Both the position numbers and the translations under genes were made by a program. The notes below the pieces were generated by a model. The model was given only the letters and a program-made list of their open reading frames with translations, did no database searches and was not told where the DNA came from. From Eubacteriales bacterium (GTDB lineage Bacteria; Bacillota; Clostridia; Lachnospirales; Lachnospiraceae): a DNA stretch of 64,000 nt. This document shows, one piece after another, positions 7,690-57,627 of this stretch (its first letter is position 1; each line of letters starts with the position of its first letter). The stretch is from the NCBI GenBank assembly GCA_030524545.1, contig JAUNGM010000005.1, forward strand, positions 1-64,000. Reading direction: 5' to 3'.

Positions 7690-7721
7690 AAAAAAGCCCC
7701 TCACACATGCGTGTGAAGGGC
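7690..7721 (-). terminator. T-box terminator of valS leader
   Basis: On the minus strand GCCCTTCACAC and GTGTGAGGGGC form an 11-bp stem (one G-T pair) around GCAT, followed by six Ts. It sits directly after the T-box sequence and can be replaced by an antiterminator when uncharged tRNA binds. Confidence 0.92.
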
Positions 7722-7973
7722 GATCTATACCGCGGTACCACCTTCATTATGCAGAAACCTGCACATCTCATTCACCTTTAACGCAGGAATACGTGAAAGC
7801 TTACTTGCCATTCATCGCTGCCCGGAATTCCCGGCAGTTAATGTCCGTCCTTTTCAGCTTCCCGGCTCCAAAGCTACCTTCGGCAATCTCTTCCTTAAAA
7901 CACCTTCCAGCCAGCGGGCGTCTCTCTCTGTCAGGGACAATTGCTTACTCCTCTTCTTCTCAGCCTTTGTATA
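7690..7973 (-). promoter_or_regulatory. T-box riboswitch controlling valS
   Basis: The conserved T-box motif AAGGTGGTACCGCGG is at 7730-7744 (minus strand), followed by the terminator at 7690-7721. The leader of about 280 nt between the promoter and valS has room for a full stem I. A GUA triplet at 7875-7877 in the 3' side of stem I could be the valine specifier; that assignment is tentative. T-box leaders pair their specifier with the tRNA anticodon and their UGGN bulge with the uncharged tRNA end, allowing readthrough when valine is scarce. Confidence 0.93.
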
Positions 7974-11954: not shown

Positions 11955-12671
11955 CTACCACTCGATTTCTTCTACCGGAGTAGGATGTTCATTCTCCGCC
12001 ATGCCGGATACCCTGCCGTTTTTGATCCGAATAACCCGGTCCGCCATTGGAGTCAGGGCGGAATTATGGGTGATGACGATTACAGTCATCCCGCGTTCCC
12101 TGCACATATCCTGAAGAAGCTTCAGGATGGCCTTCCCCGTCTGATAATCCAAAGCACCTGTCGGCTCATCGCACAAAAGCAGCTTCGGATTCTTGGCAAG
12201 GGCACGGGCAATGGAAACTCTCTGCTGCTCGCCGCCGGATAACTGGGCCGGAAAATTGCCCAGGCGGTCCTTCAATCCCACCTCTTCCAGAACTGTCCTG
12301 GCATCCAGCGGATCTTTACAGATCTGAAGCGCCAGTTCCACATTCTCCAGCGCTGTCAGGTTCGGCACCAGATTATAAAACTGGAACACAAATCCGATAT
12401 CCTCCCTGCGGTAGCCGGTAAGCTGTCTGCTGCTGTATTTTGCAACATTATTTCCGTCCACCCAGACCTCCCCGGAGGTGGCCGTATCCATTCCTCCCAG
12501 GATATTCAGAACAGTAGTCTTGCCCGCACCGCTCGGGCCTACGATCACCACAAATTCACCCTTGGCGATCTGAAAGCTGATCTCATCTACAGCAATGATC
12601 TTTACCTCTTTGGAACCATAAATCTTGGAAACTTTTTCTAACTTTACATAATCTTTTCTGCGTTCGTTCAT
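11955..12671 (-). CDS. ABC transporter ATP-binding protein (MacB/LolD type)
   Basis: 238 residues. Walker A GPSGAGKT at 45-52, ABC signature LSGGEQQR at 144-151, Walker B LLLCDEP at 164-170 and the switch histidine in VITHN are all intact. The sequence matches the LolD/MacB/FtsE group, which partners FtsX-type permeases and works as mechanotransmission or efflux machinery. AGGAG precedes the ATG. The permease begins eight bases after its stop, so the two form a transporter. It follows deoC by 68 bases with no obvious terminator. Confidence 0.93.
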
Positions 12672-12739
12672 TCAGTCAACTCCTGTATTCATTTGTACCA
12701 CTGCTTTATCCCCCCCTGACAGTCATACCGGCTTTGGCC

Positions 12740-13381
12740 TCAGACAAGACTTGATGCAGAACTGCAGCCGATCCTGTCGCATCCGGCCTCCAGATATTCC
12801 TCCATTGCTTCTGCCGTACGGATGCCGCCCGCTGCCTTCATCTTTACATCCGGGCCGATATGTGCCCGAAACAGCCGGATATCCTCAAGGGTTGCCCCTG
12901 CTGTCCCAAATCCGGTGGATGTCTTGATATAATCAGCGCCTGCCTCCGTAATGATCCTGCACAGTTCAATCTTTTCTTCTTCCGTGAGATAGCAGGTTTC
13001 AATGATCACCTTCAGGATATGGGTGCCTGCTGCTTCCCGGATGCTTCTGATCTCACTTTCCACAGCATCAAAGTCATGATTTTTTACATCACAGATGTTC
13101 ACCACCATATCAATTTCATCTGCGCCGTCCTGCAGAGCTTTTTTTACTTCTGCCACTTTTGCCTCCGTCACACTGTAGCCCAGCGGAAAACCCACCACCG
13201 TGCAGATACGTACCTGATCCTGAAAAGTCTCCCGGATCTTGGAAATATAGCACGGCGGTACGCAGACGGAAGCTGTTTTCAGTTCGATCGCTTCCTGACA
13301 CAGCCGGATGATATCCTCCCAGGTCGCATACGCTTTTAGCTGAGTATGATCTACATGTGATAAAATTTCTGTTTTATTCAT
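12740..13381 (-). CDS. deoC: Deoxyribose-phosphate aldolase
   Basis: Class I aldolase splitting 2-deoxyribose-5-phosphate into glyceraldehyde-3-phosphate and acetaldehyde. Schiff-base lysine in YIKTSTGFGT (Lys153), the second active-site lysine in VKMKAAGGIRT (Lys182) and the catalytic Asp in DEIDMVVN (about 91) are present. Length 213 is typical. AAGGAG lies upstream of the ATG. Together with pdp and cdd it forms a pathway turning deoxycytidine and deoxyuridine into central metabolites. Confidence 0.97.
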   Translation of the reverse strand: MNKTEILSHVDHTQLKAYATWEDIIRLCQEAIELKTASVCVPPCYISKIRETFQDQVRICTVVGFPLGYSVTEAKVAEVKKALQDGADEIDMVVNICDVKNHDFDAVESEIRSIREAAGTHILKVIIETCYLTEEEKIELCRIITEAGADYIKTSTGFGTAGATLEDIRLFRAHIGPDVKMKAAGGIRTAEAMEEYLEAGCDRIGCSSASSLV

Positions 13382-52645: not shown

Positions 52646-52819
52646 TTATACAAACTGATTGGTATGCTCATCATAGTGGTAATCTATGGAGTCCATCTTC
52701 TCAACCAGTTCCTTTTTCTTTAATCCTCTGCAGGTACAGAGTGCTTCCAGGGAATCATAGTAATCCCGAAGCTGGGTATTTACATAGCTTAGCAGTATCA
52801 TAGGATCTTTGGGTATCAT
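52646..52819 (-). CDS. DUF4250 small protein
   Basis: 57 residues ([19 protein letters not shown] ... [11 protein letters not shown]). The MxPKDPxxLLSxVN start and the YxYDxxxNQFV end are the DUF4250 hallmark. Cytosolic, charged, mostly helical; function unknown. Its ATG (52819) overlaps the clpB stop as ATGA and has AAGGATGG upstream, so it is translated together with the chaperone. Confidence 0.9.
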
Positions 52820-55410
52820 GCGTTTCCATCCTTTATTCTTGTAATGAATTCCCCTTTCTCCACATCCAGCACAATAGTGTCTCCGGCGTGAACGTCTCCG
52901 GACAGAATCTGCCGTGCTGCAAGGGTCTCCACATATTTCTGCAGATAACGCTTCAGCGGACGGGCTCCGTAAACCGGATCGTATCCTTCTTCAATCGCCT
53001 GATTCTTGGCTGCATCGGTCAGTTCCAGGGAAAGTTCCTGGCTGGAAAGACGTCTGTTCAAATCCTTCACCAGTAAGTCTACTATCTTACCAATATTGTC
53101 TTTTGTCAAGGGTTTAAATAAAATTGTTTCATCAAGACGGTTCAAAAATTCAGGACGGAAGTGGTTTCTCAGGTCATTCATAACCTGCGCTTCCGCCTCC
53201 GGCTTGATCTCCCCATTCTCATCAATGCCCTCAAGCAGGTAAGGCGAACCAATATTGGAGGTCATGATTAAAATGGTATTTTTAAAATCTACGGTTCTTC
53301 CCTGGGAATCGGTGATTCGTCCGTCATCCAGTACCTGCAGGAGAACATTGAACACATCCGGGTGGGCCTTTTCAATCTCATCGAACAGAACAACGCTGTA
53401 CGGTTTTCTCCGGACTGCTTCTGTAAGCTGGCCGCCCTCTTCATATCCTACGTATCCGGGAGGAGCTCCGATCAATCTGGATACGGAGTATTTCTCCATG
53501 TATTCACTCATATCAATACGAACCATGTTCTGTTCATCGTCAAACAGATTTTCCGCAAGGGTCTTGGCAAGTTCCGTCTTACCTACACCGGTAGGTCCGA
53601 GGAACAGGAAGGAGCCGATCGGTTTGGTCGGGTCTTTGATTCCTGCTTTGGAACGGAGGATAGCATCTGTCACACGGCGGACACCTTCATCCTGGCCGAT
53701 GACACGTTTATGAAGCTGGTCTTCCAGGCCAAGGAGCTTGGTCCGCTCGCCTTCTGTCAGCCTTGTCACCGGAATACCGGTCCAGCGGGAAATGATCCTG
53801 GCAATTTCATCATCCGTCACTGCTTCGTGAACCAGTCTGCGGTCGCTCTCTTTTACATTTCTCTCTTCAATCTCAAGCTGCTGCTGCAGTCGCGGCAGTT
53901 CGCCATACTGAAGCTCTGCTGCTTTTTCCAGGTCGTAATTCTGCTGGGCTTTCTGGATCTGTTTGTTGACATCTTCAATCTGCTCGCGGAGCTTCTGAAG
54001 CTTTTCTACGGAATGCTTCTCGTTATCCCACTGGGCCTTCTGAGTATTGAAGGCATCACGCATTTCCGCCAGTTCTTTCTGAATGTCTTCCAGGCGGTCT
54101 TTGCTTAAGCTGTCCGTCTCTTTTTTCAGGGCGGACTCTTCAATCTCAAGCTGCATGATCTTTCGGCGCTGTTCGTCCAGCTCGGTAGGCATCGAATCCA
54201 ATTCGGTCTTGATCAGGGCACATGCTTCATCTACAAGGTCAATGGCCTTATCCGGAAGGAAACGATCGGAAATATAACGGTGGGACAGGGTTGCCGCTGC
54301 CACCAGGGCGCTGTCGGTGATCTTTACACCGTGGTAAACCTCATAGCGCTCTTTCAGACCACGGAGGATGGAAATGGTATCCTCCACCGTCGGCTCGTCC
54401 ACCATAACCGGCTGGAAACGCCGCTCCAGAGCAGCATCCTTCTCAATATACTGGCGGTACTCGTCCAGAGTGGTAGCTCCGATACAGTGCAGCTCTCCTC
54501 TTGCAAGCATGGGCTTGAGCATGTTGCCTGCATCCATGGCACCGTCGGTCTTGCCGGCACCTACGATCAGGTGAAGCTCATCAATGAAAAGGATGATATT
54601 TCCTTCACTCTTCTTGACTTCTTCCAGAACGGCTTTCAGACGTTCCTCGAATTCGCCTCTGTATTTGGCACCTGCTACGAGAGCACCCATATCCAGGGCA
54701 AAAATCTTCTTATTCTTCAGGCCTTCCGGTACATCGCCGCCTGCAATACGCTGGGCAAGTCCCTCGATAGCCGCCGTCTTACCGACGCCGGGTTCACCGA
54801 TCAGAACAGGATTGTTCTTGGTCTTTCTGGAAAGGATCCGGATAATGTTGCGGATCTCCGCATCACGGCCGATGACCGGGTCAAGCTTCTGGTTTCTGGC
54901 TTTCTCCACCAGCTCCTCGCCGTATTTGTTCAAGGTATCGTAAGTAGCTTCCGGGTTGTCGCTGACAACTCTCTGGTTGCCTCTGACAGTCGATAATGCC
55001 TGCAGGAAACGCTCCGTGGTGATGCCGAATTCATTGAAAATCTTCTTTACGCCCGGGCTCGGCTGCTTCAGGACGGACAGAAACAGGTGTTCCACGGAAA
55101 CGTATTCGTCTCCCATAGCCTTTGCCTCGTCCTCTGCGTTTACAAGCGCTTTATTCAAATACTGACCGAAACGGAGTTCTCCGCCGGATACCTTTACCCT
55201 GGCATCCAATGCCTTCTTAACCACATTCAGGAAATATTCCTTATTAATTTCCATCTTCTCAATAAGCTTGAGGATCAGGCTGTCTTCCTGGGTCAGCAGG
55301 GAATACAGCAGATGCTCCTGTTCGATTTCCTGGTTGCCGTATTCATAAGCGACTTTTTCCAGGTTCTGGACAGCCTCGATGGATTTCTGTGTGAATTTAC
55401 TGATATTCAT
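52816..55410 (-). CDS. clpB: ClpB disaggregase chaperone
   Basis: 864 residues from the ATG at 55410 (AGGAGG seven bases upstream); longer in-frame starts lie in the leader. Order: N-domain repeats (1-145), first AAA+ module with GEPGVGKT (about 205), the middle coiled coil that marks ClpB (about 400-520), second AAA+ with GPTGVGKTE (about 605), and no ClpP-binding loop visible. Rescues aggregated proteins with DnaK. Controlled by HrcA through CIRCE. Followed by a coupled DUF4250 gene. Confidence 0.97.
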
Positions 55411-55538
55411 AGGCTTTCCTCCTTTTTTATAAGAAACGTATTTTACTATAAAAGTCCCGGACATACTTTTATTTATAATGATGTCTGCGCAAGCAGACAT
55501 GTCCTTCAAAATACTGTTGTTTTCCTTGTTCTAGTGGG

Positions 55539-55567
55539 AATATAACACTTTTTATTCCTGTTGTCAA
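55539..55567 (-). promoter_or_regulatory. Sigma-A promoter of clpB
   Basis: TTGACA (55562-55567) and TATATT (55539-55544), 17-base spacer on the minus strand. CIRCE sits just upstream of the -35. Confidence 0.9.
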
Positions 55568-55575
55568 GGGTTTTG

Positions 55576-55602
55576 TTAGCACTTTCTTTTGGTGAGTGCT
55601 AA
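55576..55602. promoter_or_regulatory. CIRCE element (HrcA operator)
   Basis: TTAGCACTT, nine bases, GAGTGCTAA: the canonical inverted repeat with one mismatch in the first arm. HrcA represses heat-shock genes through it; its position upstream of the clpB promoter fits class I control. Confidence 0.95.
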
Positions 55603-55799
55603 TTCATTTGTGAAGAAAGTGTGAAATAGGAAAGTACATACAACCGACAAAGAAGAGGTTTTAATCTTAGAAAGCTTGATAAATTAGCGATATAACCTCG
55701 AAATAGGCAGTTTTGGGCTTTATTGGCTAAGTTCTATGGCTTATATCATAAAACGGCTATACGGAGCAAATAGAGCGTTACGTGGGCGCATAATTATTG
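55603..55799. other. Gap with no recognisable gene
   Basis: Between CIRCE and the toxin promoter I see no convincing reading frame, RNA motif or repeat. AT-rich, no strong hairpin. Confidence 0.5.
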
Positions 55800-55828
55800 T
55801 TGCTTGATCAAAAATCATATGCTATACT
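55800..55828 (+). promoter_or_regulatory. Promoter of the toxin-like mRNA
   Basis: TTGCTT (55800-55805), 17 bases, then TATACT (55823-55828) preceded by TG one base before, an extended -10. Predicted start near 55835, so the mRNA begins with the 5' arm that pairs with its own 3' end. Confidence 0.7.
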
Positions 55829-55836
55829 TTGGAAAT

Positions 55837-56100
55837 GGGAAACCATAGAGCCGGGCGGCTTACCCTCTTTGATCGGAGGGGCTAACCCTCCAGACTACAA
55901 AGGAAGGAGGGCGTTGCCAATGGTTACATATTCTGATCTGATTCAGTTTTGTATCTTCATTGTTGCCCTTGTTGGTCTGTGCTATCAGATATTCAAGGGG
56001 AAACGAAAATAGCCGCCACTACTGCCAATAGTGACGACTAAACATTATAAAATGCTTTAACTTGTTGTTTTGGAGGGTAGGCCGCTTCTATGGCTTTCCC
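55837..56100 (+). other. Long-range complementary mRNA ends and SD-sequestering stem
   Basis: The 5' arm (55837-55867, GGGAAACCATAGA then GCGGCTTACCCTC) is complementary to the 3' arm (56073-56100) apart from an extra base and a short bulge. Inside, GGAGGG (55875-55880) pairs with CCCTCC (55886-55891), and that same CCCTCC can instead pair with the Shine-Dalgarno GGAGGG at 55906-55911. This matches the folded, inactive mRNA of type I toxins. Inference from sequence only. Confidence 0.65.
55920..56012 (+). CDS. Putative holin-like toxin peptide (Hol_Tox type)
   Basis: 30 residues: MVTYSDLIQF, a membrane helix (CIFIVALVGLCYQIF), then a basic end KGKRK. This is the layout of the Hol_Tox family of small membrane peptides, often the toxin of type I toxin-antitoxin pairs. 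AAGGAGG lies nine bases upstream of the ATG. No partner protein is encoded. A likely antitoxin would be an antisense RNA; a TATAAT on the minus strand (56044-56049) could start it, but no good -35 is seen. Identification rests on motif resemblance. Confidence 0.75.
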   Translation: MVTYSDLIQFCIFIVALVGLCYQIFKGKRK

Positions 56101-56106
56101 TTTTTT
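56076..56106 (+). terminator. Terminator of the toxin-like mRNA
   Basis: GGG, T, AGGCC pairs with GGCTT, T, CCC around eight bases, then six Ts. The same bases form the 3' arm of the long-range pairing. Confidence 0.75.
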
Positions 56107-56213
56107 GTATCTTAAATATAGCATATCTGGCGAAAGGATTCAAGAGATTTATTGCGTCCGGCTATTTAGAATTCACATGTCATTAACTTTTATCGAGTGT
56201 TAATTTATAAAAT

Positions 56214-56283: not shown

Positions 56284-57627
56284 CTAGAAATGCAATACTC
56301 CAAGAACCACACCTGCGATCAGGCAGATAATGCTGACGCCCCAGATCCACGGGAAGCTTGTTTTGATGTGATCCTTGATTTCTACTCCGGCAAGGCCTAC
56401 GCCAAGGAACGTGGCAGGTACGACCGGGCTGATAAAGGTGGCACAGTTACGGCAGACAACCATGGCAATGGCTGTATGTGCGGGATTTACGCCAAAGGCA
56501 TCTCCGATTCCGATAAGAACCGGCAGAAGTCCGAAGAAATAAGAATCTGTACAGAACATCAGGGTCAGCGGCACGGACAGGATTCCGATGATAAGCGGAA
56601 GGAAACGGCCCATAGACTGCGGAATAAAGGATGCCAGTACGTTTGCCATATGTACCATGATCTCACTCTCTTCCAGAACACCCAGGAATACGCCTGCGGC
56701 AAGGATGGTAGATGCCATCATAAGTGCCGGACCGGAATGAGATTTGATGATTTTATTCTGAAGCTTTGCTCCCGGATAGTTAACAAAAAGGGCAACTGCA
56801 CAGCCGATCATGAATACATAGTAAGACGGCACATCCAGGAAAATCAGACATACGATCACGATCAGAGTAAGAACGATATTAAATCCAAACAGGTTCGGTC
56901 TTGCCAGATCGCTAAGTTCAGAACTGCCTGTTTCACCTGCGGTTTCTTCCGCAGCTTCAGCCATGGCATCTGACTCCGCTGAGGATCCTGCACCTCTCTT
57001 TTTCTCGATATTTCCCCAGATAAAAGCTGTGGCAAGTGCAATGACAATACCAACGATCTGCATTGGCAGAAGATCCATCCACAGTTCATTCGGGTCAATG
57101 CCAAGGACGGTTGCGGAACGCATGGTCGGGCCGCCCCAGGGAAGCAGATTCATAACGCCCATTGCAGTCACACAGATCAAAAGCAGAGTTGTGGGGCGCA
57201 TCTTCAGGCGTTTGTAGACCGGAAGCATAGCCGGTATCGTGATCAGGAAGGTGGATGCTCCGCCGCCGTCAAGATGTCCGATCATGGCGATGATGCATGT
57301 CATCAATGCAACTCCTACTACGTTGTTTCCCACTCTCTTCATCAGTGCATTGATGATTTTATCAAACATTCCGGCATCTGTCATGATTCCGAAAAACAAT
57401 ACGGAAAAGATGAATAATGCGGCAGTGGAATGCACTCCCGATACACCTGCACTGATAAAGTCTCCCATCTCTGCCACGGTAAATGTTCCGGTTGCCACTA
57501 AGACAGCGGCTGTCACTGTAGATACCCCGATGAATGCCAGGGCCGGAACTGTCACGTTCTTCAGCAGCAGGACGATGATCATGATGATGGTTGCGAACCC
57601 CAGAAGGGCAAGCATGGTTTCGTTCAT
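56284..57627 (-). CDS. CitMHS-family citrate transporter
   Basis: 447 residues, about 11 membrane helices. The family hallmark GHLDGGGASTFLITIPAMLP is near residue 120, and LPWGGPTMR follows. CitMHS proteins move metal-citrate complexes (Mg2+ for CitM, Ca2+ for CitH) with protons. Its neighbours, a two-component system and citrate lyase genes, fit citrate import for fermentation. The ribosome site is AAGGAGGAACC. Promoter with two spaced repeats lies upstream. Confidence 0.92.
   Translation of the reverse strand: MNETMLALLGFATIIMIIVLLLKNVTVPALAFIGVSTVTAAVLVATGTFTVAEMGDFISAGVSGVHSTAALFIFSVLFFGIMTDAGMFDKIINALMKRVGNNVVGVALMTCIIAMIGHLDGGGASTFLITIPAMLPVYKRLKMRPTTLLLICVTAMGVMNLLPWGGPTMRSATVLGIDPNELWMDLLPMQIVGIVIALATAFIWGNIEKKRGAGSSAESDAMAEAAEETAGETGSSELSDLARPNLFGFNIVLTLIVIVCLIFLDVPSYYVFMIGCAVALFVNYPGAKLQNKIIKSHSGPALMMASTILAAGVFLGVLEESEIMVHMANVLASFIPQSMGRFLPLIIGILSVPLTLMFCTDSYFFGLLPVLIGIGDAFGVNPAHTAIAMVVCRNCATFISPVVPATFLGVGLAGVEIKDHIKTSFPWIWGVSIICLIAGVVLGVLHF

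What the first reader, a model, noticed from the sequence alone, without database searches (positions are those of the whole stretch)
55800..56106. Type I toxin-like locus whose mRNA ends are complementary
A self-contained unit: extended -10 promoter, a 270-nt mRNA, a 30-residue membrane peptide of Hol_Tox layout and a terminator. The 5' end (55837-55867) pairs with the 3' end (56073-56100), and CCCTCC (55886-55891) can mask the Shine-Dalgarno (55906-55911). Both are traits of hok-, AapA- and BsrG-type toxins, where the primary transcript is kept silent and an antisense RNA controls it. The combination of long-range pairing with this peptide family in a Lachnospiraceae chromosome seems little described. 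A minus-strand TATAAT at 56044-56049 could start an antisense RNA covering the toxin, but no -35 is seen.
Basis: partly seen in the sequence, partly recalled or inferred. Interest (0 to 1): 0.78.

Follow-up and report, generated by a model that had tools for sequence, protein, structure and literature searches.

The report
Gut-bacterium toxin gene with RNA antitoxin
A short stretch of this gut bacterium's chromosome looks like a tiny membrane-peptide toxin gene together with an opposing RNA that should silence it, and its RNA seems built so that the toxin can be made only once both ends of the message have paired, which is a testable idea about how such genes are kept safe.

Summary
A 30-aa Hol_Tox peptide sits on a predicted ~270-nt transcript whose two ends pair over 27 bp. 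The pairing covaries across 57 aligned loci, and arm complementarity recurs in 112 further loci. The promoter is kept in 60 of 65 loci of the first set and 104 of 112 of the second. This is most likely a type I toxin-antitoxin of the txpA/bsrG layout, from a Lachnospiraceae-centred family that no Rfam model matched.

The regulation is probably the reverse of hok/AapA. The 3' arm resembles the Shine-Dalgarno (SD) and cannot mask it. It competes with the SD for a CCCUC anti-SD in the 5' arm. Folding predicts the SD closed in nascent, 3'-less or antisense-bound RNA (opening cost ~8.5 kcal/mol) and less closed in full-length end-paired RNA (4.8; lower than 3'-less in 54 of 57). The antitoxin would act by taking the 3' arm away. 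Transcripts, toxicity and the switch are untested. Verdict: a new variant of a known kind.

The parts
55800..55828 (+). sense promoter: -35 TTGCTT 55800-55805, 17-nt spacer, extended -10 TG-N-TATACT (TATACT 55823-55828)
   Evidence: sequence; score >=9.5 in 50 of 65 loci against 5.4% of shuffles
55836..56106 (+). predicted toxin mRNA, about 270 nt
   Evidence: promoter and U-tract positions; not observed experimentally
55837..55867 (+). 5' arm (55837-55849 and 55854-55867) of the long-range helix; also the partner of the SD in the leader fold
55863..55869 (+). anti-SD box C1 (CCCUCUU) in the 5' arm, which can pair either with the SD or with the 3' arm
   Evidence: position 55867 pairs the SD in 57 of 57 loci but the 3' arm in 37 of 57; neighbouring 55866 shows no such preference (47 and 49 of 57)
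55875..55891 (+). leader hairpin GGAGGG (55875-55880) : CCCTCC (55886-55891)
   Evidence: 98.0% of cells paired over 57 loci, no compensatory change
55906..55911 (+). Shine-Dalgarno GGAGGG
   Evidence: for accessibility
55920..56012 (+). toxin ORF, 30 aa MVTYSDLIQFCIFIVALVGLCYQIFKGKRK, Hol_Tox
   Evidence: PF16935 32.2 bits, cut-off 23.3
56001..56040 (-). antisense-RNA terminator: 14-pair hairpin 56040..56010 followed by TTTTCGTTT
   Evidence: hairpin of >=10 pairs with T-rich tail in 62 of 65 loci on this strand, 23 of 65 on the other strand, 2.5% of shuffles; position near the stop codon
56002..56108 (-). predicted antitoxin antisense RNA, about 105 nt, covering the toxin 3' UTR; its 5' part resembles the mRNA 5' arm
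   Evidence: promoter and terminator; not observed experimentally
56073..56100 (+). 3' arm: pairs with 55837-55867; SD-like GGAGGG at 56072-56077; also forms a local sense-terminator hairpin
   Evidence: local hairpin -14.2 kcal/mol
56101..56106 (+). U-tract of the sense terminator
56115..56143 (-). antisense promoter: -35 TTGAAT 56143..56138, 17-nt spacer, extended -10 TATATT 56120..56115
   Evidence: score >=9.5 in 60 of 65 loci against 3.4% of shuffles and 1 of 65 on the other strand; 104 of 112 in a second set

Best explanation
A type I toxin-antitoxin locus. The sense promoter makes a ~270-nt mRNA for a 30-aa single-helix membrane peptide (Hol_Tox). A convergent promoter just beyond the toxin terminator makes a ~105-nt antisense RNA that covers the whole toxin 3' UTR and ends at the toxin stop codon (promoters and terminators shown in sequence; transcripts inferred). 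Mechanism (inferred from folding and conservation): the 5' arm carries an anti-SD (CCCUC) with two rival partners, the SD and an SD-like box in the 3' arm. While the RNA is nascent, or lacks its 3' arm, the leader buries the SD. Once the 3' end is made, the 3' arm takes the anti-SD away, protects both ends and makes the SD easier to open, so the full-length end-paired form is the translatable one. The antitoxin, whose 5' part imitates the mRNA 5' arm, pairs with the 3' arm, hands the anti-SD back to the SD, and makes a duplex for RNase III.
For: Hol_Tox over cut-off. Antisense promoter in 60 of 65 loci (shuffles 3.4%) and 104 of 112 loci fetched by a leader 24-mer. Antisense terminator hairpin of >=10 pairs in 62 of 65 (other strand 23 of 65, shuffles 2.5%); in the second set a strict motif is met in 90 of 112. 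Arms: 13 of 27 pairs with two-sided changes against 6.3 shuffled, 0/500; 89.9% of cells paired against 38.2-58.2% slid; 8 pairs around the loop of the local terminator hairpin, 31 two-sided cells against 12.1, 0/500. Own arms pair better than the mean cross pairing in 58 of 65 and 100 of 112. SD opening cost 8.5 kcal/mol for leader+CDS, 8.5 with the 3' UTR blocked, 4.8 full-length; lower than 3'-arm-less in 54 of 57 and than leader+CDS in 52 of 57; 8.85 with shuffled 3' UTR; 9.6 to 5.0, lower in 104 of 112. Anti-SD position 55867 pairs the SD in 57 of 57 and the 3' arm in 37 of 57. Antitoxin-induced SD closure is known for bsrG/SR4 (PMC6562991 passages); a full-length-active, antitoxin-disrupted toxin mRNA is proposed for timP (PMC11228461).
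Against: No transcript, toxicity or probing data. The leader (SD-masking) helix shows no covariation above shuffles; 83.0% of its cells pair against 35.7-55.4% slid, but SD constraint alone keeps part of it. Position 55866 pairs the 3' arm slightly more often than the SD (49 and 47 of 57). The full-length form is still not open (4.8 kcal/mol; mean SD unpaired probability 0.13, with CCCTCC pairing the SD at 0.32), and in the reference the drop is modest (7.2 to 4.9). Own 3' UTR opens the SD better than other loci's UTRs in only 40 of 57. Removing the 5' arm opens the SD more (3.1, 42 loci), so 5' processing could be the real activator. 8 of 65 loci lack a normal 5' arm and were left out of the 57-row alignment. 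Energy models ignore kinetics, ribosomes and proteins.
Confidence: 0.55

Rival explanations
1. Type I toxin-antitoxin as above, but the antitoxin acts only by triggering RNase III decay (txpA/RatA style). The end pairing serves only to protect the mRNA ends, and SD accessibility is not switched.
For: Same layout and sizes as txpA/RatA, a ~270-nt mRNA with ~120-nt overlap at the 3' ends (PMC3531473 passages). RatA and SR5 cause no SD change (PMC6562991 passages). A bsrE-like phage locus run as a rough control shows little predicted change (11.6 and 11.6; 14.2 to 11.9 with a trimmed end).
Against: SD opening cost falls in 54 of 57 and 104 of 112 loci. At 55867 the anti-SD is kept in the 20 of 57 loci where the 3' arm no longer matches it.
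Confidence: 0.3
2. hok/AapA-like control: the end-paired primary transcript is inert and a nuclease trims an end to activate it.
For: Long-range 5'-3' pairing and successive leader structures, as in aapA3 (PMC6733600 passages). Removing the 5' arm lowers SD opening to 3.1 kcal/mol in 42 loci.
Against: In aapA3 the 3' element is an anti-SD; here it is SD-like and cannot mask the SD. 3' trimming is predicted to close the SD (8.5), not open it.
Confidence: 0.15
3. The inverted ends are terminal inverted repeats of a small mobile element, and the complementarity has no RNA function.
For: Ends are inverted repeats; copies are dispersed (4 long matches in one congener) and in tandem; 7 congeners with about 1.5 kb of flank upstream of clpB show no copy there; some copies lie in predicted viral contigs.
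Against: Promoters, terminators, ORF, SD and anti-SD are conserved between the ends. Covariation is by single compensatory changes in an otherwise conserved frame. No transposase in the unit; target duplications were not tested.
Confidence: 0.07
4. A small non-toxic membrane peptide under antisense control (a regulator, not a toxin).
For: Toxicity cannot be computed; Hol_Tox is a family name, not a test.
Against: Layout, convergent antisense RNA gene and SD sequestration are those of type I toxins.
Confidence: 0.1

Closest known systems
txpA/RatA and bsrG/SR4 of Bacillus subtilis (type I, 3'-overlapping antisense RNA)
   Same: Small membrane peptide, ~270-nt mRNA (txpA), ~100-140-nt overlap at the 3' ends, SD buried in the leader; for bsrG, antitoxin at the 3' end tightens SD sequestration (PMC6562991 passages and section 2.4, PMC3531473 passages)
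   Different: Different sequences and hosts. Here the antitoxin is predicted to start beyond the toxin terminator and end at the stop codon, the ends covary as one long helix, and the 3' arm is predicted to be an SD decoy that releases the SD. No direct comparison with the bsrG sequence was made
timP/TimR (structural processing) of enterobacteria
   Same: Proposed logic: nascent RNA closed, full-length RNA refolds to the active form, antitoxin destroys that form (PMC11228461; abstract and discussion read)
   Different: timP uses a 5' UTR pseudoknot; here the activating partner would be the 3' end
aapA/IsoA of Helicobacter pylori and hok/Sok
   Same: 5'-3' long-distance interaction and leader hairpins that mask the SD during transcription (aapA3; PMC6733600 passages)
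   Different: There the end-paired full-length form is inert and 3' trimming activates it; here the 3' arm is SD-like and trimming is predicted to close the SD
par/Fst (RNA I/RNA II) of Enterococcus
   Same: Convergent promoters, SD-masking 5' stem-loop, a helix at the 5' end that stabilises the mRNA (PMC7472228 passages)
   Different: No shared bidirectional terminator; antitoxin does not reach the start site; the peptide matches Hol_Tox

Membership tests
Pfam PF16935 Hol_Tox | Profile score over the gathering cut-off | tested here: met
   32.2 bits against 23.3, residues 1-30
NCBIfam NF041589 PepG1 | Score over the curated cut-off | tested here: not met
   20.5 bits against 70
Type I toxin-antitoxin system | Small hydrophobic peptide with its own RBS and promoter | tested here: met
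   intact ORF in 65 of 79 aligned elements; sense promoter in 50 of 65
Type I toxin-antitoxin system | Antisense RNA gene with own promoter and terminator, complementary to the toxin mRNA | tested here: met
   By sequence only: promoter 60 of 65 and 104 of 112, terminator 62 of 65; RNA not observed
Type I toxin-antitoxin system | Peptide toxic, antitoxin RNA neutralises it | not testable with these tools
   needs expression experiments
[quoted passage not shown]
   predicted overlap 56002-56106; range quoted in PMC6562991
bsrG/SR4-type control | Antitoxin binding at the 3' end increases SD sequestration | tested here: inconclusive
   Folding only: 4.8 full-length against 8.5 kcal/mol with the 3' UTR blocked, 57 loci
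hok/AapA-type control | 3' element masks the SD region in the full-length mRNA so that 3' trimming activates | tested here: not met
   3' arm is SD-like; truncated form predicted more closed in 54 of 57; in vivo processing not testable
par/Fst | Bidirectional terminator shared by toxin and antitoxin RNAs | tested here: not met
   Separate sites: sense at 56079-56106, antisense at 56040-56010
Any Rfam family | Match to a curated covariance model | tested here: not met
   none at gathering score at this locus, none at E<=5 for 55750-56200

The most novel reading that the evidence does not exclude
[quoted passage not shown] The antitoxin is a copy of the mRNA's own 5' arm that steals the decoy back, silencing a ribosome site it need not touch. 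The same logic is predicted for other Hol_Tox loci of the family: of 31 candidates, 19 could be modelled and 18 show a lower SD opening cost in full-length RNA, one of them by less than 0.1 kcal/mol (by peptide, about 6 of the 19 belong to this DNA family, the rest to other subtypes). It would be a Gram-positive, 3'-end-driven form of 'structural processing'.
Probability: 0.4. Interest if true: 0.72.

Novelty: new variant of a known kind. Interest (0 to 1): 0.52.

Why it matters
Type I toxins need a way to avoid translation during transcription. Gram-negative systems mostly use nuclease processing. The timP authors name Gram-positive loci (par, txpA/RatA) as candidates for refolding without processing and leave the question open (PMC11228461 discussion). 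This family offers many natural variants with compensatory changes, a simple prediction (full-length active, 3'-less inactive, antitoxin re-closes) and a wide spread: 74 of 299 sampled genomes of the family, own genome included, have a DNA match at E<=0.001 (the weakest may be chance). My paper searches listed no title or abstract start describing such a Lachnospiraceae family, and a review of type I systems in Clostridia holds none of the words Lachnospir-, Blautia or Roseburia (PMC6563280, word search). The library holds only open-licence papers and listings were truncated, so this is weak evidence of absence.

Tried and rejected
Long-range helix as the transcription terminator itself: rejected, because a local hairpin (-14.2 kcal/mol; mean -12.0 over 57) adjoins the U-tract; covariation was then re-tested on 8 pairs around its loop (6 of the 8 partners are unpaired in the reference's local hairpin). 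Phage and plasmid records: no DNA or protein match for this locus. Rfam: none. Covariation of the SD-masking leader helix: none above shuffles. A positive control with bsrG itself was not obtained; a bsrE-like locus (resemblance recalled) of an SPbeta-family phage served as a rough negative control. Target-site duplications were not tested. One search counted a larger structure (45 pairs, 17 with two-sided changes against 7.4); two pairs of its antisense-terminator helix are out of register in the reference, so I quote the arms-only count instead.

Rows dropped: 91 extracted elements; 6 named wrong-strand or fragment rows and 5 pieces under 440 nt removed, leaving 80, 79 after one duplicate; 65 of 79 had an intact ORF by my rule; 57 of 65 went into alignment A1, 8 left out by eye because the 5' arm is missing, rearranged or interrupted (several of these pair poorly; all 8 are counted). 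Second set: 140 loci, 17 matches truncated, 12 duplicates, 113 elements, 112 with an ORF; 33 candidates, 12 gave no ORF by my rule, 21 modelled; 19 of 21 lower; of the two phage loci one is unchanged to one decimal and one is higher; 9 loci fetched besides the two own-genome copies and one contig-end fragment (G022); by eye 5 (L091, L093, L094, L097, L098) show the layout and 4 (L095, L096, L099, L100) do not.

Full report
OBSERVATION. The sense promoter is TTGCTT-17-TATACT with an extended -10 (55800-55828). The leader is about 84 nt from the likely start near 55836 to the ATG at 55920. The ORF 55920-56012 encodes MVTYSDLIQFCIFIVALVGLCYQIFKGKRK, which scores 32.2 bits against Pfam Hol_Tox (cut-off 23.3) and 20.5 against NCBIfam PepG1 (cut-off 70, not a member). 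The predicted transcript ends in a U-tract at 56101-56106. Its ends (55837-55867 and 56073-56100) pair; the whole RNA folds at -103.8 kcal/mol, z = -6.7, 0 of 200 shuffles as stable.

WHAT WAS MISSED. A promoter/terminator scan shows two further minus-strand features: TTGAAT-17-TATATT with TG at 56143..56115, just outside the toxin terminator, and a 14-pair hairpin followed by TTTTCGTTT at 56040..56001, starting at the toxin stop codon. Together they define a ~105-nt antisense RNA that covers the whole 3' UTR.

RELATIVES. A DNA search found a match at E<=0.001 in 74 of 299 genomes of the same family, own genome included; the weakest matches may be chance. Two DNA copies are in the window's own genome, which has four Hol_Tox matches in all, three over the cut-off. 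From the fetched loci I extracted 91 elements; 79 remained after cleaning and 65 have an intact small ORF. It also occurs in 19 stretches of the viral contig collection. In a class-wide sample, 11 of 341 genomes, own genome included, gave a covariance-model hit. Of 9 fetched loci besides the own-genome copies and one contig-end fragment, 5 show the layout by eye: L091 (strong, another family of the class), L093, L094 and L097 (other families of the class) and L098 (same family); 4 do not. No Rfam family matches. No phage or plasmid record matches this locus by DNA or protein.

ANTISENSE RNA. Scored against the sigma-70 consensus with a bonus for the extended -10, an antisense promoter of score >=9.5 is found 70-145 nt after the stop codon in 60 of 65 loci, against 3.4% of dinucleotide shuffles and 1 of 65 on the sense strand. 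With a permissive rule, a minus-strand terminator-like hairpin was found in 65 of 65, within a few bases of the stop codon in 62, three of them weak; with >=10 pairs it is present in 62 of 65, against 23 of 65 on the other strand and 2.5% of base shuffles. In a second set, 112 loci chosen only by the leader 24-mer with copies of the first set removed, 104 of 112 have the promoter (sense strand 0 of 112, base shuffles 4.3%), and 90 of 112 meet a strict sequence motif for the hairpin.

LONG-RANGE PAIRING. For each of 65 loci, the duplex of its own 5' leader with its own 3' region averages -49.6 kcal/mol, against -42.6 for pairings with other loci, and is better than the row mean in 58 of 65. In the second set the values are -48.9 and -42.5, better in 100 of 112. 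On alignment A1 (57 of the 65, the window's own among them; 8 with missing or rearranged 5' arms left out) the arms alone have 13 of 27 pairs with changes on both sides against 6.3 shuffled and 55 such cells against 21.1 (0 of 500 shuffles for each); 26 of the 55 cells come from one pair. Paired cells are 89.9%, against 38.2-58.2% when the partners are slid. These controls do not remove relatedness fully. The 3' arm also forms a local terminator hairpin (-14.2 kcal/mol here, mean -12.0), so I re-tested 8 pairs around the loop of that hairpin: 91.3% paired, 31 two-sided cells against 12.1, 0 of 500. The strongest pair shows G-C 20, U-A 19, C-G 5. The long-range helix is therefore very likely an evolved feature.

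WHAT THE PAIRING DOES. The leader folded without the 3' end puts the SD (55906-55911) against the CCCUC of the 5' arm (55863-55867), with pairing probability 0.95-0.96 in the reference (mean 0.67-0.70 over 57). CCCTCC 55886-55891 pairs with GGAGGG 55875-55880 instead (0.98-0.99 in all states in the reference; 0.66-0.77 over 57). The 3' arm carries the same purine box as the SD (GGAGGG 56072-56077). It cannot mask the SD; it can only compete for the anti-SD. The free energy to open the SD averages 8.5 kcal/mol for leader plus CDS, 8.5 with the 3' UTR blocked as if bound by antisense, 8.5 without the 3' arm, and 4.8 full-length; full-length is lower than 3'-arm-less in 54 of 57 and than leader plus CDS in 52 of 57. 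With shuffled leaders it is 5.3, so the leader masks the SD more than chance (53 of 57). Removing the 5' arm gives 3.1 (42 loci). Replacing the 3' UTR gives 6.4 with other loci's UTRs (own better in 40 of 57) and 8.85 with shuffled ones (own better in 52 of 57). In the second set the cost falls from 9.6 to 5.0, lower in 104 of 112. In the reference locus the change is smaller (7.2 to 4.9). At 55867 the base can pair the SD in 57 of 57 but the 3' arm in only 37 of 57 (20 SD only, 0 arm only); at 55863-55865 the balance is also towards the SD (1, 1 and 6 SD only, 0 arm only); at 55866 it is not (6 SD only, 8 arm only). G-U pairs and alignment shifts enter these counts. The leader helix has no covariation above shuffles, as expected of nearly invariant boxes, so this half of the model rests on conservation and energy only.

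OTHER HOL_TOX LOCI. Of 31 Hol_Tox loci from the family search and the own genome, 19 could be modelled by my automatic rules; 18 show a lower SD opening cost in full-length RNA, one of them by less than 0.1 kcal/mol. Of two phage loci from Bacillus and Paenibacillus, one is unchanged to one decimal and one is higher. The first, in an SPbeta-family phage, resembles bsrE (recalled), for which no SD change on antitoxin binding has been reported (PMC6562991 passages). By peptide, about 6 of the 19 belong to the same DNA family, so they are not all independent.

HOW IT MOST LIKELY WORKS. Shown in sequence: ORF, SD, promoters, terminators, covarying ends. Inferred: two RNAs, a membrane-active peptide, nascent RNA closed, full-length RNA more open and end-protected, antisense RNA (whose 5' part copies the mRNA 5' arm) capturing the 3' arm, so that the anti-SD returns to the SD and RNase III can cut the duplex. 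This is close in layout to txpA/RatA and bsrG/SR4 (PMC6562991 passages and section 2.4; PMC3531473 passages) and in logic to timP 'structural processing' (PMC11228461 abstract and discussion). It is opposite in polarity to aapA3 and hok, where the end-paired RNA is inert and 3' trimming activates it (PMC6733600 passages). par/Fst shares convergent promoters and leader masking but has a shared terminator (PMC7472228 passages).

CONTEXT. The locus lies between clpB (52816-55509, minus) and a transporter-like gene (56284-57627, minus); both names are my reading of the ORFs, without a family search. In nine fetched congeners with the clpB end, similarity stops by 55627. Seven of them hold about 1.5 kb beyond and show no copy there; the other two hold only about 0.3 and 0.5 kb. 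One congener has four long copies elsewhere. Tandem copies occur. The unit is thus dispersed and probably gained and lost often, which fits a selfish or addiction role but does not show it.

VERDICT. Observation confirmed and extended. Interpretation partly supported. A large, apparently uncatalogued Lachnospiraceae-centred family of type I toxin-antitoxin loci; a new variant of a known kind, with a specific, testable and unusual regulatory prediction.

Noticed in passing
window 55576-55602: CIRCE-like inverted repeat TTAGCACTT-N9-GAGTGCTAA (consensus recalled, one mismatch) next to the clpB promoter TTGACA-17-TATATT (55567..55539 minus): probable HrcA control of clpB.
   Followed up: no
window 55465-55505: Dispersed ~40-bp repeat containing GTCTGCGCAAGCAGAC; other copies in the same genome on contigs C2, C47 (two) and C12 and in congeners.
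   Followed up: no
window 7713-7970, minus: T-box leader, 109.3 bits.
   Followed up: no
L266 1-7369 (viral contig), element near 835-858 minus: Same leader box and, by eye, similar end arms and antisense-terminator layout, but a different 28-aa peptide (MTVLEFIAVVGYTVTVFSLGYMLGCNRK): the RNA chassis seems to have changed its toxin.
   Followed up: partly
L041 (G280:C11), L039 (G181:C7), L009/L037 (G172:C16): Tandem arrays of two to four matches to the unit, some partial or with a rearranged 5' arm.
   Followed up: partly
L264 about 12490-12895: Copy in a predicted provirus directly beside a site-specific recombinase-like ORF (by eye).
   Followed up: no
L004/L077 and L007/L078 (same genome, contigs C4 and C48): Two more Hol_Tox matches (49.1 and 22.2 bits, the second under the cut-off) not found by the DNA search. 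By eye both have a convergent antisense promoter and SD-like 3' arms; L004 modelled 7.3 to 2.7 kcal/mol, L007 gave no ORF by my rule.
   Followed up: partly
L091 (G539, another family of the class): Closely similar copy of the unit outside the family (E 4.5e-25): recent transfer or contig mis-binning.
   Followed up: no
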